Shown: positions 990 through 7,774 of the stretch, piece after piece
How the letters are laid out: the number at the start of each line of letters is the position of its first letter
How positions within the stretch are numbered: the first letter of the stretch is position 1
Source of the DNA: Nitrospirae bacterium RBG_19FT_COMBO_42_15
GTDB taxonomy: Bacteria > Nitrospirota > CAKKRA01 > 9FT-COMBO-42-15
DNA: 7,774 nucleotides
Assembly: GCA_001803815.1 (NCBI GenBank)
Contig: MHEL01000019.1
Coordinates: forward strand, 3,683 to 11,456
Direction of reading: 5' to 3'
Made by a program: the position numbers and the translations under genes
The notes under the pieces: model-generated
What the model saw: only the letters and a program-made list of their open reading frames with translations
What the model was told of the DNA's origin: nothing
The model's database searches: none

Positions 990-1517
990 TTATTTTTTCC
1001 AGCTTCCTGCTTCTTTCCCCGCTGCTGTATCATAGCCCTTCTTTATCCAACCGGGAATACCATCACGCAGCCAATATACATTTTTATATCCTGCATCCAA
1101 AAGCAACGCTGACGCTGCTGGAGACTTCCAGCACTTAATCCCGTTACAATAGTTGACGATTGTATCGTCCTTTTTGACCCCTGCTGCCTCAGCCACCTTT
1201 GGTCCAGTCTTAAGCAACTCATCAGTACCAACCCACTTCGCACCCGGGATATGCTCCGCCTCGTATTCTTTATCTTTGCGGTTGTCGAGGATTACAACAG
1301 CCTTCCCCTCATCCATCCACTTCTTCAGCTCTTCAGTTGTGATATTTTTCACCCCTGCCATTGTTGCCGGCATTTCTACCTTTTGGCCGGCGAGGTTTTT
1401 CATCTCATCAGCCGTCTTCAATGCCTTAGCGGAAAACTGCTCGGCGAAAGCCGACCCTGCCATCACAAAAAGCACTGTTAGAATCACGGCAAAACCCATT
1501 TTTATTGTAGCTATCAT
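990..1517 (-). CDS. Periplasmic rhodanese-like sulfurtransferase
   Basis: A 175-residue secreted single-domain rhodanese. Residues 1-25 form a Sec signal peptide ending in SAFA. The mature part has the family landmarks: ITTEELKKWMDEGK (59-72), the substrate-loop region VVILDNR (74-80), the EAEHIPGA motif (86-93), and the active-site segment VNYCNGIKCWKS (121-132) with the expected catalytic Cys at C124. It ends with YWLRDGIPGW (148-157). Rhodaneses move sulfane sulfur onto or from an active-site Cys. The export signal places this one in the periplasm, where thiosulfate, polysulfide or SoxY-bound persulfide could be partners (inference). A second Cys (C129) sits five residues after the catalytic one. 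AAAGGAGGTAG lies just upstream of the ATG at 1517. The gene follows the putative sulfate exporter by 39 nt, so they are probably co-transcribed, and a terminator follows. Rhodanese fold is near certain; substrate is unknown. Confidence 0.93.
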   Translation of the reverse strand: MIATIKMGFAVILTVLFVMAGSAFAEQFSAKALKTADEMKNLAGQKVEMPATMAGVKNITTEELKKWMDEGKAVVILDNRKDKEYEAEHIPGAKWVGTDELLKTGPKVAEAAGVKKDDTIVNYCNGIKCWKSPAASALLLDAGYKNVYWLRDGIPGWIKKGYDTAAGKEAGSWKK

Positions 1518-1556: not shown

Positions 1557-3089
1557 TTACCTTATATTAGGCACAGCAAATAAAATCCCGCCGAATAATA
1601 GATAGGCAAGGATCAAAGTCCAGACAACATTTAGCGCCTGCGCAATAATAAATGCCGCTGCCGGCCTGCCGCCCTCCATGCTTGCAAGCTCTGTAAACTT
1701 CGTCTCAAGACCTATGCAAACAAATGCAAGGGCAAACCACCATTTCGTGAGCCCGCTTAAAACTGATTTTGTTGATGAAACTGTGTCTATATGGAGAATG
1801 AAGGAGAATAAAATAGAAGCAATGATAAACCCAAGGACAAACTTAGGAAAACGCTCCCAGATGATTCTTGCGCTCGGCTTTTCCCCTGTAGTAGCGCCTT
1901 TCTTTATGGTCCAAACTATAGAAAGCACAAAGGCTGCCACTCCTATAAGGACATTCTGTGAGAACTTGACGATAACGCCTGCCTTCATCGCTGCTTCGCT
2001 GATTAATGCGCCTGCAGCAACAACAGAGCCGCTCGTGTCAAGGGTCCCGCCTATCCATGCCCCTCCCACAAGATCAGGGATGCCCAAGCTCTTTACGAGC
2101 CATGGCATTATAACCATCATGGGAACTGCGACAATAAGAACAAGGGATGTTACATAAGAGAGTTTCTTTTTATCCCCTTCAACTGCGCCGCATGCAGCAA
2201 TAGCCGCAGACACGCCGCAGATGGAAACAGCAGTAGACAGCATCGCCGCAAAATCTTCATCAACCTTAAGCTTCCTTGCAATCCAGAAGCAGGCATACCA
2301 TACAACAGAAACAACGAGAATCCCCTGAACAATTCCGAGGGCGCCGCCTTGAAGTATCTCAAAGAACAGGATTGCTGATCCGAGGATGACAAGCCCTGTC
2401 TTGATGTAGTATTCTGTTTGAACAGCAGGTTTGAGCCATTCAGGTACACCCACGGTATTGCTGATCAAAATGCCAAGAACCAGTGCGTAGACTACATACT
2501 CAACTCCCCAGTCTAATGCAAGGGCATTCCCTGCAATAAAATTTGAGACCCATGCAAGAAAGAAAATAATCGGAAAACCAATAATGAACTTGCCGACCTG
2601 GCCTTTAAGCAGAATCATGCCTATTGCTGCGAGTATGAGATAAGCAATGCCAAGCTTAACAGCCTTGCCGGTATTCTCTCCAGAGAAGACCTTCCCCGGA
2701 ATACTTGTCGCACGCCCAGCGATTTCCTTGCCTAACGCTCCGGGAAGATCCCCGAGACGCGCTACTTTTTCGGCTGCAGCTCCAATACCTTTTCTGTCGC
2801 CTTTAGCAAGGGCTTCTTTCAGGTCCCCAAGCCTTTTAACTGTTCCTGCATCATCCTTAGCCTGAGCTTCTTTAATGATTGAATCAGCGGCTTTATTCCA
2901 GCCGTCTATTCTTGAGGCAATCTGCCCATCTGTGGTCCACTTAAATGAAGGGCTTATACTTTTGGTATCAAACTTAAATTGACTGGTTGATAAAAGGATC
3001 AGTGCAATAATAAGGAATCCCAGCCAGACGGCTATCCAATCCTCTTTTGTATATAAATCTGACCAACCGCTTACTTTTTTCTTAGCCAT
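1557..3089 (-). CDS. YeiH/UPF0324-family membrane protein, putative sulfate exporter, with long N-terminal insertion
   Basis: A 510-residue multi-pass inner-membrane protein of the conserved-hypothetical 698 family (PF03601), usually named putative sulfate exporter although the substrate is poorly established. Visible family signatures are WGVEYVVYALVLGILISN (194-211), the STAVSICGVSAAIA segment (285-298), and GAWIGGTLDTSGSVVAAG (343-360), followed by further TM helices to the C-terminus. Typical members are about 320-350 residues. The excess here is N-terminal: TM1 at about 17-36, then roughly 100 polar helical residues (about 40-142) before the next membrane helix at 143-160. That insertion holds an internal repeat, VKRLGDLKEALAKG (84-97) and VARLGDLPGALGKE (109-122). 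AAGGGAGGTAG precedes the ATG at 3089. A sigma70-type promoter lies about 218 nt upstream. The rhodanese gene follows 39 nt downstream, and soxYZ lies upstream on the same strand, which supports a role in sulfur-anion handling. Confidence 0.9.
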   Translation of the reverse strand: MAKKKVSGWSDLYTKEDWIAVWLGFLIIALILLSTSQFKFDTKSISPSFKWTTDGQIASRIDGWNKAADSIIKEAQAKDDAGTVKRLGDLKEALAKGDRKGIGAAAEKVARLGDLPGALGKEIAGRATSIPGKVFSGENTGKAVKLGIAYLILAAIGMILLKGQVGKFIIGFPIIFFLAWVSNFIAGNALALDWGVEYVVYALVLGILISNTVGVPEWLKPAVQTEYYIKTGLVILGSAILFFEILQGGALGIVQGILVVSVVWYACFWIARKLKVDEDFAAMLSTAVSICGVSAAIAACGAVEGDKKKLSYVTSLVLIVAVPMMVIMPWLVKSLGIPDLVGGAWIGGTLDTSGSVVAAGALISEAAMKAGVIVKFSQNVLIGVAAFVLSIVWTIKKGATTGEKPSARIIWERFPKFVLGFIIASILFSFILHIDTVSSTKSVLSGLTKWWFALAFVCIGLETKFTELASMEGGRPAAAFIIAQALNVVWTLILAYLLFGGILFAVPNIR

Positions 3090-3620: not shown

Positions 3621-3626
3621 TCAGCT
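3595..3626 (-). terminator. Weak candidate intrinsic terminator overlapping the soxZ stop codon
   Basis: On the minus strand AGCTGA (3626-3621) can pair with TCAGTT (3610-3605), including one G-U pair, over a 10-nt loop, and is followed by TTTTTATTCTTTAT. The short stem makes this a weak candidate. An overlapping perfect palindrome GTCAGCTGAC (3620-3629) contains the stop codon. Confidence 0.3.
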
Positions 3627-3959
3627 GACCTTTATATCTACTGTCTCCTCAAATTTATTGCCTTCTGAACAGGTCAAAACAACTTTTAGCTGTGCAGATT
3701 TTACCGCCTTAATCTTAAAGCCTATCAACGGATTCTCGCTAAGGCCCGGCGACAGGTCAAAATCATTAATCTGCTCTCCGCCGTAATACACATACATCTT
3801 CTCAAGCGTATGCTTAGGAATGGTCTTTTTTGTCTCCCTGTCCTTGCGGAGGCCTGACTCCATCGGGTGGTCAATCTTTACCTTTATCTCAACGATGCTG
3901 CCCTTCTTGATATCCGAGGGAATCCTCATCTTCGGTTTTTGCGTTTCTACCATTGCCAT
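3621..3959 (-). CDS. soxZ: Thiosulfate-oxidation carrier subunit SoxZ
   Basis: A 112-residue protein matching SoxZ in length and pattern. SoxZ is the partner of SoxY; the SoxYZ heterodimer carries sulfur intermediates through the periplasmic Sox cycle. SoxZ has no signal of its own and is normally exported together with Tat-targeted SoxY. Recognisable features are PKMRIPSDIKKGSIVEIKVKI (near 9-29, an Ig-like first strand pair), the hallmark DHPMESGLRKD at 30-40, VYYGGEQINDFDLSPGLSENP (57-77), and a final strand ending TVDIKVS. No N-terminal signal peptide is visible, as expected. A cysteine at C97 is unusual and falls where SoxY here has its extra Cys (C138). The ATG at 3959 has GGAGGGAG ending 5 nt upstream. 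The gene starts 48 nt after soxY, so the two are surely one unit. Confidence 0.93.
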   Translation of the reverse strand: MAMVETQKPKMRIPSDIKKGSIVEIKVKIDHPMESGLRKDRETKKTIPKHTLEKMYVYYGGEQINDFDLSPGLSENPLIGFKIKAVKSAQLKVVLTCSEGNKFEETVDIKVS

Positions 3960-4007: not shown

Positions 4008-4481
4008 TTAGCACCCTCCAACAGTAACCTTAATGTCAGCGCTGCCTTCCCACTTTCCATGTTTATTGCATTCCACTATAGCCCGCACCTTTGTGCTCTC
4101 AGCGAGTTTTATTCTTGTAGAGATATATGCCTCGCCGTTTGCAGGCGTAAACCTGTAAAGACCCTTGCTCGGTATTGCGCTTAAATCATCTAAAATGTAT
4201 ATGCTCTTTATATAATGGTCAGGCTCCATGGGGTGGTTTACAGAAACTATTATTGGGACTAAACTGCCGTCTTCAGCTATTATTGGAATATCCACTTTTG
4301 GGATATGTATTGCCTCTTCAGGGGTAAGGTTTTTCGGATCAACTGCCTTTTTTCCAGACTCTGCAGCAGCCAATACGCTCTTAGGCATAAGTATATCAGG
4401 TATGATTGAACTGATTAGTCCAATTAATGCAGCGGCCCTTAGAAATGCCCTTCTTGAGAGACCCTCTTTGATAATATTCAT
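4008..4481 (-). CDS. soxY: SoxY-like sulfur carrier with Tat signal and superoxide-reductase-type ligand set
   Basis: A 157-residue Tat-exported protein. SoxY holds sulfur intermediates on a C-terminal Cys for thiosulfate/sulfide oxidation, together with SoxZ. Residues 9-15 are the twin-arginine motif SRRAFLR, followed by a hydrophobic stretch and likely cleavage after VLA or AAA near 36-40. The Ig-like SoxY domain spans about 55-154 and the protein ends VTVGGC, with C157 the carrier cysteine. The usual final GG of the GGCGG arm is missing. Unlike standard SoxY it contains NHPMEPDHYI (82-91) and CNKHGKW (138-144), plus an upstream His (H59, in AIHIPKV). These are the positions and spacings of the five iron ligands of superoxide reductase. 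Start choice: the Shine-Dalgarno AAGGGAG (4494-4488) directly abuts an ATG at 4487 but sits 6 nt before the ATG at 4481, so 4481 is preferred; using 4487 adds only two residues. soxZ follows after 48 nt. Confidence 0.88.
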   Translation of the reverse strand: MNIIKEGLSRRAFLRAAALIGLISSIIPDILMPKSVLAAAESGKKAVDPKNLTPEEAIHIPKVDIPIIAEDGSLVPIIVSVNHPMEPDHYIKSIYILDDLSAIPSKGLYRFTPANGEAYISTRIKLAESTKVRAIVECNKHGKWEGSADIKVTVGGC

Positions 4482-4505
4482 ATTCATCTCCCTTCTTTAA
4501 GTAGG

Positions 4506-4634: not shown

Positions 4635-5414
4635 TCATGGCAGGGTTGCTACAGCCTTCTGGCCGGGGCGTATTATAGCAGAAGGGCCGATGCTGAATCT
4701 GATATCCACCTCGTATAGAGACCCTCCTTCACTAACGCCAACCGGCTCCATTCCAATACGGCTGATTACACCTTTATATTCCTTGCCAGAGACCTTTACA
4801 GAAGCCTTCTGCCCAAGCGACAGGGCTGCTAATCCTTTGTCAGGGATTTTGATTCTCGCCACCATATAGCCTGACTCTGCAAGTGTAAACATAGGGGCAG
4901 GCTGCATAGCTGATATAATGGTCTGGCCAATCTCAATAGTTCTATTCAGTATTATTCCGTCAAAAGGCGCCTTGACAACACTATATTCTAAATCAAGCTC
5001 TGCCTTTGTCAGGACAGCCTGAGCTGCCTTATATTCAGCATCGCTTGTTAAAGATCCAATCCTTGCAAGCTCCAGCTCGTGGTCAGCAAGGAGCTCCCGT
5101 TCATGCATCTCCTTTGCCCTTTTTAATTCCCCTTCTGCCTCGCGATGCTTCACCTCAAGCCTTTTAACCCCTGCCTTTGCCTTTTCCACCTCCGCCTTAA
5201 AAGGACGCTCATCCAGCTTCATCAGAGGCTGCCCTTTGCGCACATGATCGCCTATATTTACAAGCGCCTCTGTTACAATACCTGATACCGGAGTGCTAAG
5301 CTCAACCTTGCGGGACCATTGCAGGGCGGCATCTATGTCCTTAGCCCATAATGCAGCAGGCAGTATAAATAAAAATATAAAACAGAGTATCACTGAATCT
5401 GCTCTTTTATTCAT
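4635..5414 (-). CDS. Periplasmic membrane-fusion (HlyD/RND-type) efflux adaptor
   Basis: A 259-residue adaptor linking an inner-membrane transporter to a TolC-type duct. Residues 1-24 are a signal peptide ending ALWA. VELSTPVSGIVTEALVNIGD (37-56) and RKGQPLMKLD (59-68) form the first half of the lipoyl-like domain. A charged alpha-helical hairpin follows (about 70-143; EKAKAGVKRLEVKHREAEG and onward). The second lipoyl half is VVKAPFDGIILNRTIEIGQ (146-164), and beta-barrel strands run to the C-terminal RPGQKAVATLP. It is short for the family, with little or no membrane-proximal domain. The frame is open further upstream to 5540, but the start at 5414 is preferred: it has GGAGGAAAGG just before it, gives a clean signal peptide, and overlaps the tolC-like stop by 8 nt, a typical coupling arrangement. 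No inner-membrane pump gene is in the window. Confidence 0.88.
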   Translation of the reverse strand: MNKRADSVILCFIFLFILPAALWAKDIDAALQWSRKVELSTPVSGIVTEALVNIGDHVRKGQPLMKLDERPFKAEVEKAKAGVKRLEVKHREAEGELKRAKEMHERELLADHELELARIGSLTSDAEYKAAQAVLTKAELDLEYSVVKAPFDGIILNRTIEIGQTIISAMQPAPMFTLAESGYMVARIKIPDKGLAALSLGQKASVKVSGKEYKGVISRIGMEPVGVSEGGSLYEVDIRFSIGPSAIIRPGQKAVATLP

Positions 5415-6729
5415 CCTTTCCTCCATTAAAGACCTTTTCCCCTGTAAGCGCATCAAGCCTTGCCCATGCCAGCGCAATGGCGTATTTAGTCTCTGCAAGG
5501 CGCAGCCTCGCCTCAGAATATTCCACAAGGGAGCTTCCAAGATACGCCCTTAAACCCTGCTCATAGATGGTTCTTGCATGGTCAAGAGACAGGTCTCTAT
5601 ATTTAACCAGTGTATTGACCTCTTCAAGCTGATAGTGCAGGACATTTATCTGCTGCCACGTTTCAAAAACAGCCTTGCGGACATCCATCTCCCTGCGGCG
5701 CAGACCTGCCTCAATGCGGTGCAGCTCAGCTGTATGCGCTGCAATCTTGGATGCCCTTCTGCCTCCTGTTAAAAATGGTATCTCCAGCACAAGCCCTGCG
5801 CGCAGCCTGTCCCTTGAGCCAAACTCCCTCTCATAAGCAGATGCCTCAAGTTCAGCAGACAAAACAGGGCCCCACTCAAAGCGGGCAGCCTTAATCCGTT
5901 TATTCGCAGCCTCAACCTTCTCCTTTAGGGATAGAATCACAGGGTCTTTGGAAAGGGCGCTCTTGATAAGCCCTTCCATCTCCGGCAATTTACGGTCAAT
6001 CTGCAAAAGCGAAGGCTCTGTAAGCGCTGCGGGGAGTTTGCCGGGGCGATTAAGCGCCTCAGCAAGAAGCTGTCGTGTAATATTCTGACGCGCCTCGCTC
6101 GCAGCCCTTTTTCTGCGCGTCTCCCTGTATTTTGCCTCTGCCTCCAAGAGCTCTAAGCCTGATGCCTTTCCTAATTCCTTGCTTTTCTCCAGACTCTGAA
6201 ACCTGAAATAGGCGACTGCCACTTCTTCTCTATTGCGGATAAATTCAAGATCTGATATCAGCACGCCGAAGAATTTCTCCATGATATCTATCTGCCGCCT
6301 GCTCATTGCATCCTTATAAAGCAGCTCGTTAGCCTTTATATCCATCTCTGCTGCAGACAGCTTAAGGCTGCTTCTGCCAAAATCGTATATCCTCTTTTTC
6401 AGCGAAAAGCCCGCCATTGAATCATTATGGGATTGGTCTGGCGCAGCCCGGGCAGGCTCCACCCACGTTGCGCGGCCGACAACAGAGGCATTTATGCCTG
6501 TCTCGGATTCCACGCCAAGATATCTTGCCTCTGCATCTTCTATTTCTGATTTTGAAAGCAATATATCGGGATGCGGCTCACTGGCAAGCTGGAGCGCATA
6601 TTCAAGGGTGAGCGGTTCCGGCAAGGACGGAGCAGGCTTTTCCTCAGCGCGAAGATGAGGAGATAGCGTCAACACATAAAGAAAAAATGCCGCATAAATG
6701 CCCGGCTTCCTGATGAAACAGCTCTTCAT
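5407..6729 (-). CDS. TolC-family outer-membrane efflux protein
   Basis: A 440-residue protein with the length and layout of the outer membrane efflux family (PF02321, two repeats). Residues 1-28 are a signal peptide ending HLRA. PLTLEYALQLASEPHPDILL (39-58) is the typical family opening. KKRIYDFGRSS matches the conserved YDFGR-type strand of repeat one, and LEIPFLTGGRRASKIA is its counterpart in repeat two. Long charged helices between them form the periplasmic alpha-barrel, and YSEARLRLAETKYAIALAWARLDALTGE closes the protein. It would trimerise into an outer-membrane channel used by the adaptor encoded immediately downstream. The start ATG at 6729 overlaps the stop of the upstream thioredoxin gene as ATGA (6729-6726), with only a weak AAAAGG before it, so translation is probably coupled to the upstream gene. 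That matters because the upstream gene contains an in-frame UGA. The cargo is unknown. Confidence 0.92.
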   Translation of the reverse strand: MKSCFIRKPGIYAAFFLYVLTLSPHLRAEEKPAPSLPEPLTLEYALQLASEPHPDILLSKSEIEDAEARYLGVESETGINASVVGRATWVEPARAAPDQSHNDSMAGFSLKKRIYDFGRSSLKLSAAEMDIKANELLYKDAMSRRQIDIMEKFFGVLISDLEFIRNREEVAVAYFRFQSLEKSKELGKASGLELLEAEAKYRETRRKRAASEARQNITRQLLAEALNRPGKLPAALTEPSLLQIDRKLPEMEGLIKSALSKDPVILSLKEKVEAANKRIKAARFEWGPVLSAELEASAYEREFGSRDRLRAGLVLEIPFLTGGRRASKIAAHTAELHRIEAGLRRREMDVRKAVFETWQQINVLHYQLEEVNTLVKYRDLSLDHARTIYEQGLRAYLGSSLVEYSEARLRLAETKYAIALAWARLDALTGEKVFNGGKDE

Positions 6730-7241
6730 TTTGCCTTTTCTTTTTGTCTCTGCTGTTTATATTTTATAAAAGGCATATCCTTATATACGCCGTTTGCAAC
6801 ATATTCCCCAAGCCATATGAATTCAGTATCAGTCTGTGTGGCGCCCAGATAACGCGTTACCTCATTGCCATTGAGATCAAAAAAGATAAATGTTGGGGTG
6901 GCTCGGACATGATTATCTCGTGTATACTTCTTCTCAGACATTGTCGCGCCTTTGAAATCAGTAATCTCCACATCGCCCCTTATATTTACAACAAAGATAA
7001 GAAAGCGCTCTTTATAAAAGTTATAGACTTCTGCTTTAGGAAAAACCTTTTCCTTCATCCAATTGCAGAAGGGTCATGTATCCTCTTCAAAAAAAAGCAT
7101 GATGCCCTTTTTGCCCTGCTCCTTTGCAGTCTTGAGCTCGTCAGTGAAATCCCCAAGGGTTGCATCAAAGAATTCAGCAGCCCATGCTGTGCCATGCATC
7201 AATATAAATATTATTAAAAGGATTATGCCAAGCCTTTTCAT
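6726..7241 (-). CDS. SoxW-like periplasmic thioredoxin, predicted selenoprotein with Sec in the UPFC active site
   Basis: Read through the single in-frame UGA at 7076-7074, this is a 171-residue thioredoxin-fold protein like SoxW (PF13098 group), which reduces or exchanges periplasmic thiol/disulfide partners such as SoxY. Residues 1-22 are a signal peptide (MKRLGIILL...TAWAA). GKKGIMLFFEEDT leads into U56-P-F-C59-NWM, where most relatives have C-P-[FY]-C. Further family landmarks continue in the same frame: KVFPKAEVYNFYKERF, NIRGDVEITDF, and RATPTFIFFDLNGNEV with the cis-Pro near 116. The UGA alone splits it into 62-codon and 110-codon ORFs. A SECIS-like structure directly follows the UGA. 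UGA is a normal stop elsewhere here (soxZ, the adaptor and this gene itself) and Trp is encoded by TGG. Start at 7241 is chosen for GAGGT six nt upstream; an ATG at 7262 overlaps the previous gene. No other Cys is present. Alternative: a pseudogene with a nonsense mutation. Confidence 0.85.
7026..7073 (-). promoter_or_regulatory. Bacterial SECIS-like RNA element after the UGA codon
   Basis: Immediately 3' of the UGA on the minus-strand transcript, CUUCUGC (7071-7065) pairs perfectly with GCAGAAG (7034-7028). An internal loop follows, then AGGAAAA (7054-7048) pairs perfectly with UUUUCCU (7044-7038) over the loop GGU (7047-7045). Twenty-six nt separate the UGA from the apical loop. Bacterial SECIS elements are known to have a stem beginning close to the UGA and a small apical loop with a G (often GU) near its 5' side, at about this distance; SelB binds this loop. 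A shorter alternative fold (CCUUC with GAAGG, 7072-7052) competes. Confidence 0.78.
7074..7076 (-). other. In-frame UGA, predicted selenocysteine codon
   Basis: The codon lies in ACA-TGA-CCC-TTC-TGC, translating to T-U-P-F-C. It falls exactly at the first redox position of a thioredoxin CxxC, which is where known Sec-containing thioredoxin-fold proteins place their Sec. Both sides of the codon encode one continuous thioredoxin domain in the same frame. Confidence 0.83.
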
Positions 7242-7251
7242 CAATATACCT

Positions 7252-7774
7252 CTATTTTCCATACATCTCTATAACTTCCTTAATGAGACCCTCAAGCAGT
7301 TTCTCAACAGGGTCAAGGACATCCTTGCCGCTGTCATCATTCCAGATAAGGCGCCTGTAGGAGAGATACACCTTTTTTTCATCCTGAGGGAGGGTATAGA
7401 CCATTATCTGATACGGGCAAAAAGCAAGGAAGTGGGGGTTCTTCTCCATCATATCCCTTGAACTAACAGCGCTGCAGAATTCCATGACATTTGCCTTCCC
7501 AAATATTTTCTTGGTCCTGCCCAGGTCCTTACCTGTCCTCTCCAGCATCTCACCCACATGGGAAACGCTGGATACAGTCAGCCCCCTTCCATGCAAAGCA
7601 GCCTGCAGGCCTTCCCATACCTCTTCATAGTCAGCATTAAATGTGTATATGACAACAGGCTCTTTGCCCTTGACAGACATCTCGCCTGTCAATGGTTTGT
7701 CCCCCTTAGCTGCAAATGCCTGCAGAGGAGACAGCGCTGCCAAAGACAACAGAACTAATAAAATTATTCTCGCT
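7252..7774 (-). CDS. Secreted DUF302 protein, 5' end outside window
   Basis: The frame is open to the window edge and 173 codons are visible. The first visible residues, ARIILLVLLSLAALSPLQAF and then AA, are most of a signal peptide, so the real start lies just beyond 7774; a TTG inside this segment is not a credible start. The mature protein carries a DUF302 domain (PF03625): VVIYTFNADYEEVWEGLQAA, LHGRGLTVSSVSHVGEML, the Cys-containing VMEFCSAVSSRDMM, and HFLAFCPYQIMVYTLP (C100 and C118 counted from the first visible codon). The domain's biochemical role is not established. It is found in secreted proteins of sulfur- and metal-active bacteria, and it starts the thioredoxin-tolC-adaptor cluster here. 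The stop at 7254-7252 is 10 nt before the preferred start of the thioredoxin gene, so the two are co-transcribed. The two Cys might be redox partners of the Sec-thioredoxin, but that is inference only. Confidence 0.88.
   Translation of the reverse strand, partial: ARIILLVLLSLAALSPLQAFAAKGDKPLTGEMSVKGKEPVVIYTFNADYEEVWEGLQAALHGRGLTVSSVSHVGEMLERTGKDLGRTKKIFGKANVMEFCSAVSSRDMMEKNPHFLAFCPYQIMVYTLPQDEKKVYLSYRRLIWNDDSGKDVLDPVEKLLEGLIKEVIEMYGK

What the first reader, a model, noticed from the sequence alone, without database searches (positions are those of the whole stretch)
6726..7241. A SoxW-like thioredoxin with selenocysteine (UxxC) that ordinary gene calling splits in two
Two adjacent ORFs on the minus strand, one ending at 7074 and the next beginning at 7058, are in the same frame and are separated only by a UGA plus five sense codons. 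Joined, they give one continuous secreted thioredoxin domain with T-U-P-F-C at the active site. Every expected element lies in one frame: signal peptide, FFEEDT before the site, CNWM after it, NIRGD, cis-Pro TPTFIFFD. A nonsense mutation could hit any codon, yet this one hits precisely the catalytic Cys position. Sec-containing thioredoxin-fold proteins are established, but a Sec form in a sox gene neighbourhood is, as far as I know, not a standard textbook case. Sec would lower the thiol pKa and speed reduction of SoxY or another persulfide-bearing partner.
Basis: partly seen in the sequence, partly recalled or inferred. Interest (0 to 1): 0.95.

Follow-up and report, generated by a model that had tools for sequence, protein, structure and literature searches.

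The report
Selenocysteine SoxW-like thioredoxin in sox cluster
A bacterium of a likely sulfur-oxidizing groundwater lineage has a thioredoxin gene with a stop codon exactly at its catalytic cysteine, as do three related species; the stop is likely read as selenocysteine, and the protein is predicted to be secreted and to serve thiosulfate oxidation.

Summary
A minus-strand frame (7241 or 7262 to 6726) is broken only by a TGA at 7076-7074, at the first catalytic Cys of a predicted secreted thioredoxin (T-U-P-F-C). Four Nitrospirota species share this TGA; of 65 database relatives, 62 have Cys there and 3 are split halves. The part after the TGA is under purifying selection (dN/dS 0.04-0.13), and Sec and Cys forms interleave in the tree. 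The host MAG (65.6% complete) has tRNA-Sec, selD and part of selB on one contig; selA was not found, but the contig ends inside selB, beside which a relative carries it. SECIS evidence is weak. 'SoxW-like' survives testing: 35% identity over 107 aa to a Paracoccus thioredoxin in SoxW position, and soxB, soxA, soxY and soxZ lie near the Sec gene in three relatives. Against it, 15 of 15 Cys-form loci showed no sox gene in the flanks held, and one TGA species (G003) showed no sel genes. UxxC members of PF13098 are already listed as selenoproteins; new is a Sec, SoxW-like form tied to sox clusters. Selenium incorporation and the Sox role are inferred.

The parts
6726..7241 (-). Sec-containing SoxW-like thioredoxin gene, joined reading (Sec56 from ATG 7241; Sec63 if ATG 7262 is used)
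   Evidence: PF13098 61.9 bits; AlphaFold model mean pLDDT 93.3, thioredoxin fold
7074..7076 (-). in-frame TGA at the first catalytic Cys position, predicted Sec codon
   Evidence: TGA in 4 species, TGC/TGT in Cys forms
7028..7071 (-). predicted SECIS-like hairpin: lower stem CUUCUGC/GCAGAAG; upper part folds in more than one way, one of them AGGAAAA/UUUUCCU with a GGU loop at 7047-7045
   Evidence: fits the published bSECIS rules (PMC13188914) but is weak statistically
7252..7773 (-). DUF302 protein upstream; on the contig it is in frame with a YeeE-type (PF04143) sulfur transporter (555-aa ORF, L082:10934-12601)
5407..6729 (-). TolC-like outer membrane efflux protein
   Evidence: PF02321; an OEP gene follows the Trx in G003, G089, G270, L049, L052, L054, L056
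4635..5426 (-). HlyD-like membrane fusion protein
   Evidence: PF13437
4008..4487 (-). SoxY-type carrier, Tat-like signal, ends GGC-COOH; below the NCBIfam cut-off for true SoxY (81.8 of 125 bits)
3621..3959 (-). SoxZ (79.3 bits, cut-off 76)
1557..3089 (-). PF03601 membrane protein
990..1517 (-). rhodanese, probably exported
   Evidence: the signal sequence is my reading

Best explanation
A SoxW-like thioredoxin gene, predicted to be secreted, carries a TGA in place of its first catalytic Cys codon and is likely translated through as a UxxC selenoprotein that would act on sulfur carried by SoxYZ. Steps: (1) shown in sequence: the TGA sits at the catalytic Cys in four species, and the frame continues beyond it under purifying selection; (2) inferred: SelB and tRNA-Sec decode it with the help of the hairpin at 7071-7028; (3) inferred: the protein is exported to the periplasm and recharged by a CcdA/SoxV-type membrane protein; (4) inferred: the low-pKa selenol attacks oxidised or persulfidated SoxY, giving back free SoxY and releasing the sulfane sulfur, which the YeeE-type transporter encoded upstream could take to cytoplasmic reverse Dsr, since the described relative nzgw271 is reported to have Sox without SoxCD.
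For: TGA/Cys pairing at an otherwise invariant column. dN/dS after the TGA 0.043-0.129 in the 4 of 6 pairs where dS could be computed. Sec and Cys forms interleave in the tree; starred branches force at least 2 changes. Host contig C83: selB C-terminal part (77.1 bits, partial, below cut-off), tRNA-Sec with anticodon tca (99 nt, identical to G001), selD 396.3 bits. G089 has selA, selB and a selD whose in-frame TGA lies at the UxxK site by eye, a second witness for Sec decoding there. Sox context: soxB (821-823 bits), soxA, true soxY and soxZ in the clusters of G001, G003 and G089 (soxZ of G001 by Pfam). SoxW likeness: 35% over 107 aa to the thioredoxin behind ccdA in a Paracoccus sox operon; the family profile scores it 79.6 bits and SoxS 7.1. 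Of 13 plasmid records with a relative, 9 have it within 2.8 kb of soxB. In G270 the Cys form lies in Trx-TolC-HlyD-CcdA order.
Against: selA not found in the host MAG, which is 65.6% complete. G003, 96% complete, has the TGA gene but no selA, selB, selC or selD over cut-off. No tRNA-Sec found in G089: its best model hit, 47.7 bits and just over the gathering score, reads as tRNA-Ser in ARAGORN. SECIS: against synonymous recoding p = 0.04, 0.23 and 0.40 for the three distinct sequences; by the strict rules 3 of 4 Sec forms pass (2 distinct sequences; L004 fails) and so do 4 of 11 Cys forms. Partner: SoxA, SoxB, SoxY and SoxZ of G001 find nothing in the flanks held of 15 of 15 Cys-form loci (L048-L061, L124), so the wider family does not depend on Sox; some flanks are short. 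No ccdA gene among the window genes scanned. No expression, selenium or activity data.
Confidence: 0.77

Rival explanations
1. Selenoprotein, but not for SoxY: the Trx works with the TolC-HlyD pair next to it, or in cytochrome c maturation, and its place in the sox cluster is incidental.
For: A TolC-type gene follows the Trx in L049, L052, L054, L056 and G270, with HlyD behind it in all but L049, and 15 of 15 Cys-form loci show no soxA, soxB, soxY or soxZ in the flanks held. Nearest solved folds are an H. pylori thioredoxin-fold protein and DsbD C-terminal domains; DsbH follows.
Against: The three Sec-form relatives whose flanks I read all have soxB, soxA, soxY and soxZ in the same cluster, and the window has soxY/soxZ-type genes; similarity to SoxW and linkage of 9 of 13 plasmid relatives to soxB.
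Confidence: 0.22
2. Pseudogene or sequencing error: a nonsense mutation or a miscalled base at the Cys codon.
For: Assembled MAG data only; G003 has no sel gene over cut-off.
Against: Same TGA in four species whose synonymous sites have diverged (dS 0.49 to 1.71 where computed), with low dN/dS on both sides; repeated Sec/Cys switching; the 110-aa halves recur as database clusters of 5, 28 and 6 member sequences.
Confidence: 0.03
3. Two separate products, a 62-aa peptide and a 110-aa protein started at 7058, or the TGA read through as another amino acid.
For: Databases hold the 110-aa piece as a protein.
Against: The 110-aa piece lacks both catalytic positions (63 and 66) and the strand E53-59 of the fold, and no ribosome site precedes it (sequence; my reading). 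TGA ends other genes here, at 6728-6726 and 3623-3621.
Confidence: 0.03

Closest known systems
SoxW, periplasmic thioredoxin of the Sox system (Paracoccus, Rhodovulum)
   Same: Predicted secreted PF13098 thioredoxin in a sox cluster; GDVE-TDF-G-SEK stretch; 35% identity over 107 aa.
   Different: Sec instead of the first Cys; followed by TolC and HlyD; no ccdA seen beside it; the C-terminal third does not align.
'Thiol:disulfide interchange protein', PF13098, UxxC, WP_011366075.1 (PMC13188914, Table 1, read)
   Same: Same Pfam family and same UxxC motif; predicted selenoprotein.
   Different: I did not see that sequence, so subfamily identity is untested; a search of that review for words beginning 'sox' found none.
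NCBIfam TsoB, rhodanese/DsbD fusion-like selenoprotein (NF045694)
   Same: Best NCBIfam match, via its thioredoxin part.
   Different: 28.8 bits against a cut-off of 805; different architecture.
SoxS
   Same: PF13098 oxidoreductase in sox loci.
   Different: No BLASTP alignment to P0001; 7.1 bits with the family profile.

Membership tests
Bacterial selenoprotein (UGA-decoded) | In-frame UGA aligned with the conserved Cys of homologues | tested here: met
Bacterial selenoprotein (UGA-decoded) | tRNA-Sec and selD in the host | tested here: met
   G000 contig C83
Bacterial selenoprotein (UGA-decoded) | selA and complete selB in the host | tested here: inconclusive
   selB only in part, selA not found; MAG 65.6% complete and C83 ends inside selB; both present in G001 and G089
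Bacterial selenoprotein (UGA-decoded) | SECIS hairpin just after the UGA | tested here: inconclusive
   strict rules: 3 of 4 Sec forms and 4 of 11 Cys forms pass; null p 0.04-0.40
Bacterial selenoprotein (UGA-decoded) | Selenium in the protein | not testable with these tools
   needs 75Se or mass spectrometry
SoxW | Sequence relation to SoxW of a known sox operon | tested here: met
   the reference protein is annotated only 'thioredoxin' and taken as SoxW by its position after ccdA
SoxW | Gene in a sox cluster | tested here: met
   Sec forms; not so for the 15 Cys-form loci
SoxW | Partner SoxV/CcdA gene beside it | tested here: not met
   none among the window genes scanned; CcdA-type genes elsewhere in G000, C1 and C160; the G270 Cys form has one in its cluster
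SoxW | Reduced by SoxV, acts on Sox proteins | not testable with these tools
   needs biochemistry
TsoB selenoprotein | Score above NCBIfam cut-off | tested here: not met
   28.8 of 805 bits

The most novel reading that the evidence does not exclude
Selenium works directly in energy-yielding sulfur oxidation: the selenol of this Sec-SoxW takes the sulfane sulfur off SoxY as a selenopersulfide and passes it to the neighbouring YeeE-type transporter for reverse Dsr, filling the gap left by missing SoxCD; Sec was taken up by the lineage whose gene sits in the sox cluster.
Probability: 0.2. Interest if true: 0.85.

Novelty: new variant of a known kind. Interest (0 to 1): 0.66.

Why it matters
It would place selenocysteine in the Sox pathway of uncultured Nitrospirota. 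How SoxY-bound sulfur reaches the cytoplasm in bacteria that pair Sox with a cytoplasmic oxidation system is open (PMC10451225 calls it a mystery; passage); a selenol thioredoxin next to a YeeE-type transporter gives a testable answer. It also shows a gene that databases hold as 110-aa fragments.

Tried and rejected
SelB N-terminal part on C117: rejected, the sequence reads as EF-Tu (my reading). The second tRNA-Sec model hit of G000 and the best hits of G003 and G089 are tRNA-Leu, tRNA-Leu and tRNA-Ser in ARAGORN; weaker hits were not checked. SECIS by folding energy, against synonymous recoding and against Cys relatives: not decisive. My first coding of the rules passed 4 of 4 Sec and 4 of 10 Cys forms, but the L004 structure had a single pair under the loop; the strict coding passes 3 of 4 and 4 of 11. 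Cys rows without the PFC motif (L058-L061) were not folded. Rank of the hairpin among 48-nt windows of the gene: 1 of 163 (L001), 9 of 163 (L003), 33 of 163 (L002), 43 of 165 (L004). Further UGA/Cys pairs in eight sox, sel and Trx loci by all-against-all tblastn: on the coding strand only this gene (my sorting of the hits). More Sec forms in the order of G089: 2 of 176 genomes match, L004 and the Cys form of G270. Literature on Sec in Sox: searches listed no paper with it in the title; some lists were capped (one search showed 15 of 62 papers), and I read only the passages and sections named. The outgroup of the tree is very long, so its root is unsure.

Full report
The window lies in a MAG of 1.57 Mb, 181 contigs, 65.6% complete. 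The contigs of same-genus genomes G001 and G003 match, by length and by the gene, the records of nzgw271 and Hainich-H32-bin128-1, which PMC11033732 puts in the Nitrospirota genus 9FT-COMBO-42-15, from groundwater (passages).

The gene. Two minus-strand ORFs join through the TGA at 7076-7074 into one predicted secreted thioredoxin with T-U-P-F-C. From start 7241 the gene follows DUF302; from 7262 it overlaps it. Pfam: Thioredoxin_2, 61.9 bits. AlphaFold mean pLDDT is 93.3; nearest solved folds are an H. pylori thioredoxin-fold protein and DsbD C-terminal domains, then DsbH.

Is the TGA a Sec codon? Of 395 phylum genomes 7 match at 1e-12: four have TGA at this codon (G000, G001, G003, G089); G270 has TGT; the two distant ones (25-29% identity) have Cys. 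Of 65 database proteins 62 have Cys at both positions and 3 are 110-aa halves. Of 16 loci from genome contigs, 2 have TGA (the records behind G001 and G003) and 14 have TGC/TGT. dN/dS is 0.086-0.223 before the TGA (6 of 6 pairs) and 0.043-0.129 after it (4 of 6; two had no computable dS). In a 73-row tree the four Sec rows sit in a nine-row clade with five Cys rows; starred branches force at least two changes. A dead gene would not give this pattern.

Machinery. G000: tRNA-Sec 70.2 bits, ARAGORN tRNA-SeC(tca), 99 nt identical to G001; selD 396.3 bits; selB C-terminal part, 77.1 bits; all on contig C83, which ends inside selB. In G001 one contig holds selD, selC, selB and selA in a row, so selA is expected past the end of C83 (inference). 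Results against: no selA in G000; G003 has no sel gene over cut-off; G089 has selA, selB and a TGA-containing selD but no tRNA-Sec that ARAGORN confirms.

SECIS. After the TGA, bases +3..+9 pair with +40..+46; the upper part has several near-equal folds, one of them +20..+26 with +30..+36 around a GGU loop, -12.1 against a minimum of -14.2. The rules in PMC13188914 (passages: loop 3-9 nt, stem at least 4 bp, G in the first two loop bases, 16-37 nt from the UGA, MFE at most -7.5) are met by L001, L002 and L003 but not by L004, and by 4 of 11 Cys forms. Against synonymous recoding p = 0.04, 0.23, 0.40. This is compatible with a SECIS and is no proof.

Neighbourhood. Window: DUF302, Sec-Trx, TolC, HlyD, SoxY-type, SoxZ, PF03601 protein, rhodanese. 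G001: cytochrome c, SoxY, SoxZ, SoxA, SoxB, a hydrolase, YeeE-type transporter, DUF302, Sec-Trx, then the contig ends. G003: SoxX-like (55.8 of 61 bits), SoxY, SoxZ, SoxA, SoxB, a hydrolase, YeeE-type, a DUF302-like frame (by eye), Sec-Trx, TolC, HlyD, a DsbH-like protein, second SoxY-type and SoxZ. G089: SoxY, SoxZ, SoxA, SoxB, substrate-binding protein, two-component genes, rhodanese, DUF302, Sec-Trx, TolC, HlyD. In Cys forms TolC follows in L049, L052, L054, L056 and G270, HlyD in four of these five; G270 adds CcdA. SoxA, SoxB, SoxY and SoxZ of G001 find nothing in 15 of 15 Cys-form loci (3.9 to 16.5 kb held). So Sec and sox linkage go together here, and the Cys family at large does not need Sox.

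SoxW test. From a Paracoccus ferrooxidans plasmid I took the thioredoxin between ccdA and soxX: 35% identity over 107 aa, with the GDVE-TDF-G stretch. The family profile gives it 79.6 bits, another host Trx 56.9, SoxS 7.1, a TlpA-like protein 6.0. P0001 finds 13 plasmid records; 9 have the match within 2.8 kb of soxB. Of the other 4, one Aliiroseovarius stretch that I opened shows DsbD and cytochrome genes and no sox gene; 3 were not opened. Three of the nine (Paracoccus ferrooxidans, Rhodobacter, Ruegeria) were opened with annotation and show ccdA-Trx-soxXYZAB; Paracoccus pantotrophus had no annotation. That SoxV reduces SoxW is the title of a reference (Appia-Ayme and Berks 2002) in PMC10451225.

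Mechanism. nzgw271 is reported with soxXAYZB and reverse dsr but no soxCD, so sulfane sulfur on SoxY must leave it; PMC10451225 suggests a YedE-like SoxT transporter, perhaps with SoxS (passage). I propose that the Sec-Trx does this job or keeps SoxY reduced. Steps beyond the sequence are inference.

Novelty. UxxC proteins of PF13098 and a YeeE selenoprotein are already in the 2026 list of 119 families (PMC13188914, section 7, parts 1 and 2 of 3); no word beginning 'sox' occurs in that text. Hence a new variant of a known kind: a Sec, SoxW-like form in sox clusters.

Noticed in passing
L082:10934-12601 (window 7252-7773 and upstream): In this MAG the YeeE-type transporter and DUF302 form one 555-aa ORF, while in G001 (L085) they are two genes; fusion or a frameshift.
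   Followed up: no
window 4008-4487: The SoxY-type carrier ends GGC-COOH and scores below the true-SoxY cut-off; a like pair (L086:1773-2617) follows a DUF255/DsbH-like gene in G003.
   Followed up: partly
window 4635-6729: TolC and HlyD genes with no inner-membrane pump gene between or just beside them; a TolC-type gene follows this Trx in Gammaproteobacteria too.
   Followed up: partly
L104 (G089 C28): SelD of G089 carries its own in-frame TGA at the UxxK site, so it is itself a predicted selenoprotein; SelD of G000 has Cys there.
   Followed up: partly
L086 / G003: G003, 96% complete, has the TGA gene but no sel gene over cut-off; either the sel contig is missing from the bin or the machinery is lost.
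   Followed up: no
L125 (G000 C1): CcdA-type gene in a cluster with ResB, cytochrome c assembly, TlpA-like and another PF13098 thioredoxin: looks like a cytochrome c maturation locus.
   Followed up: no
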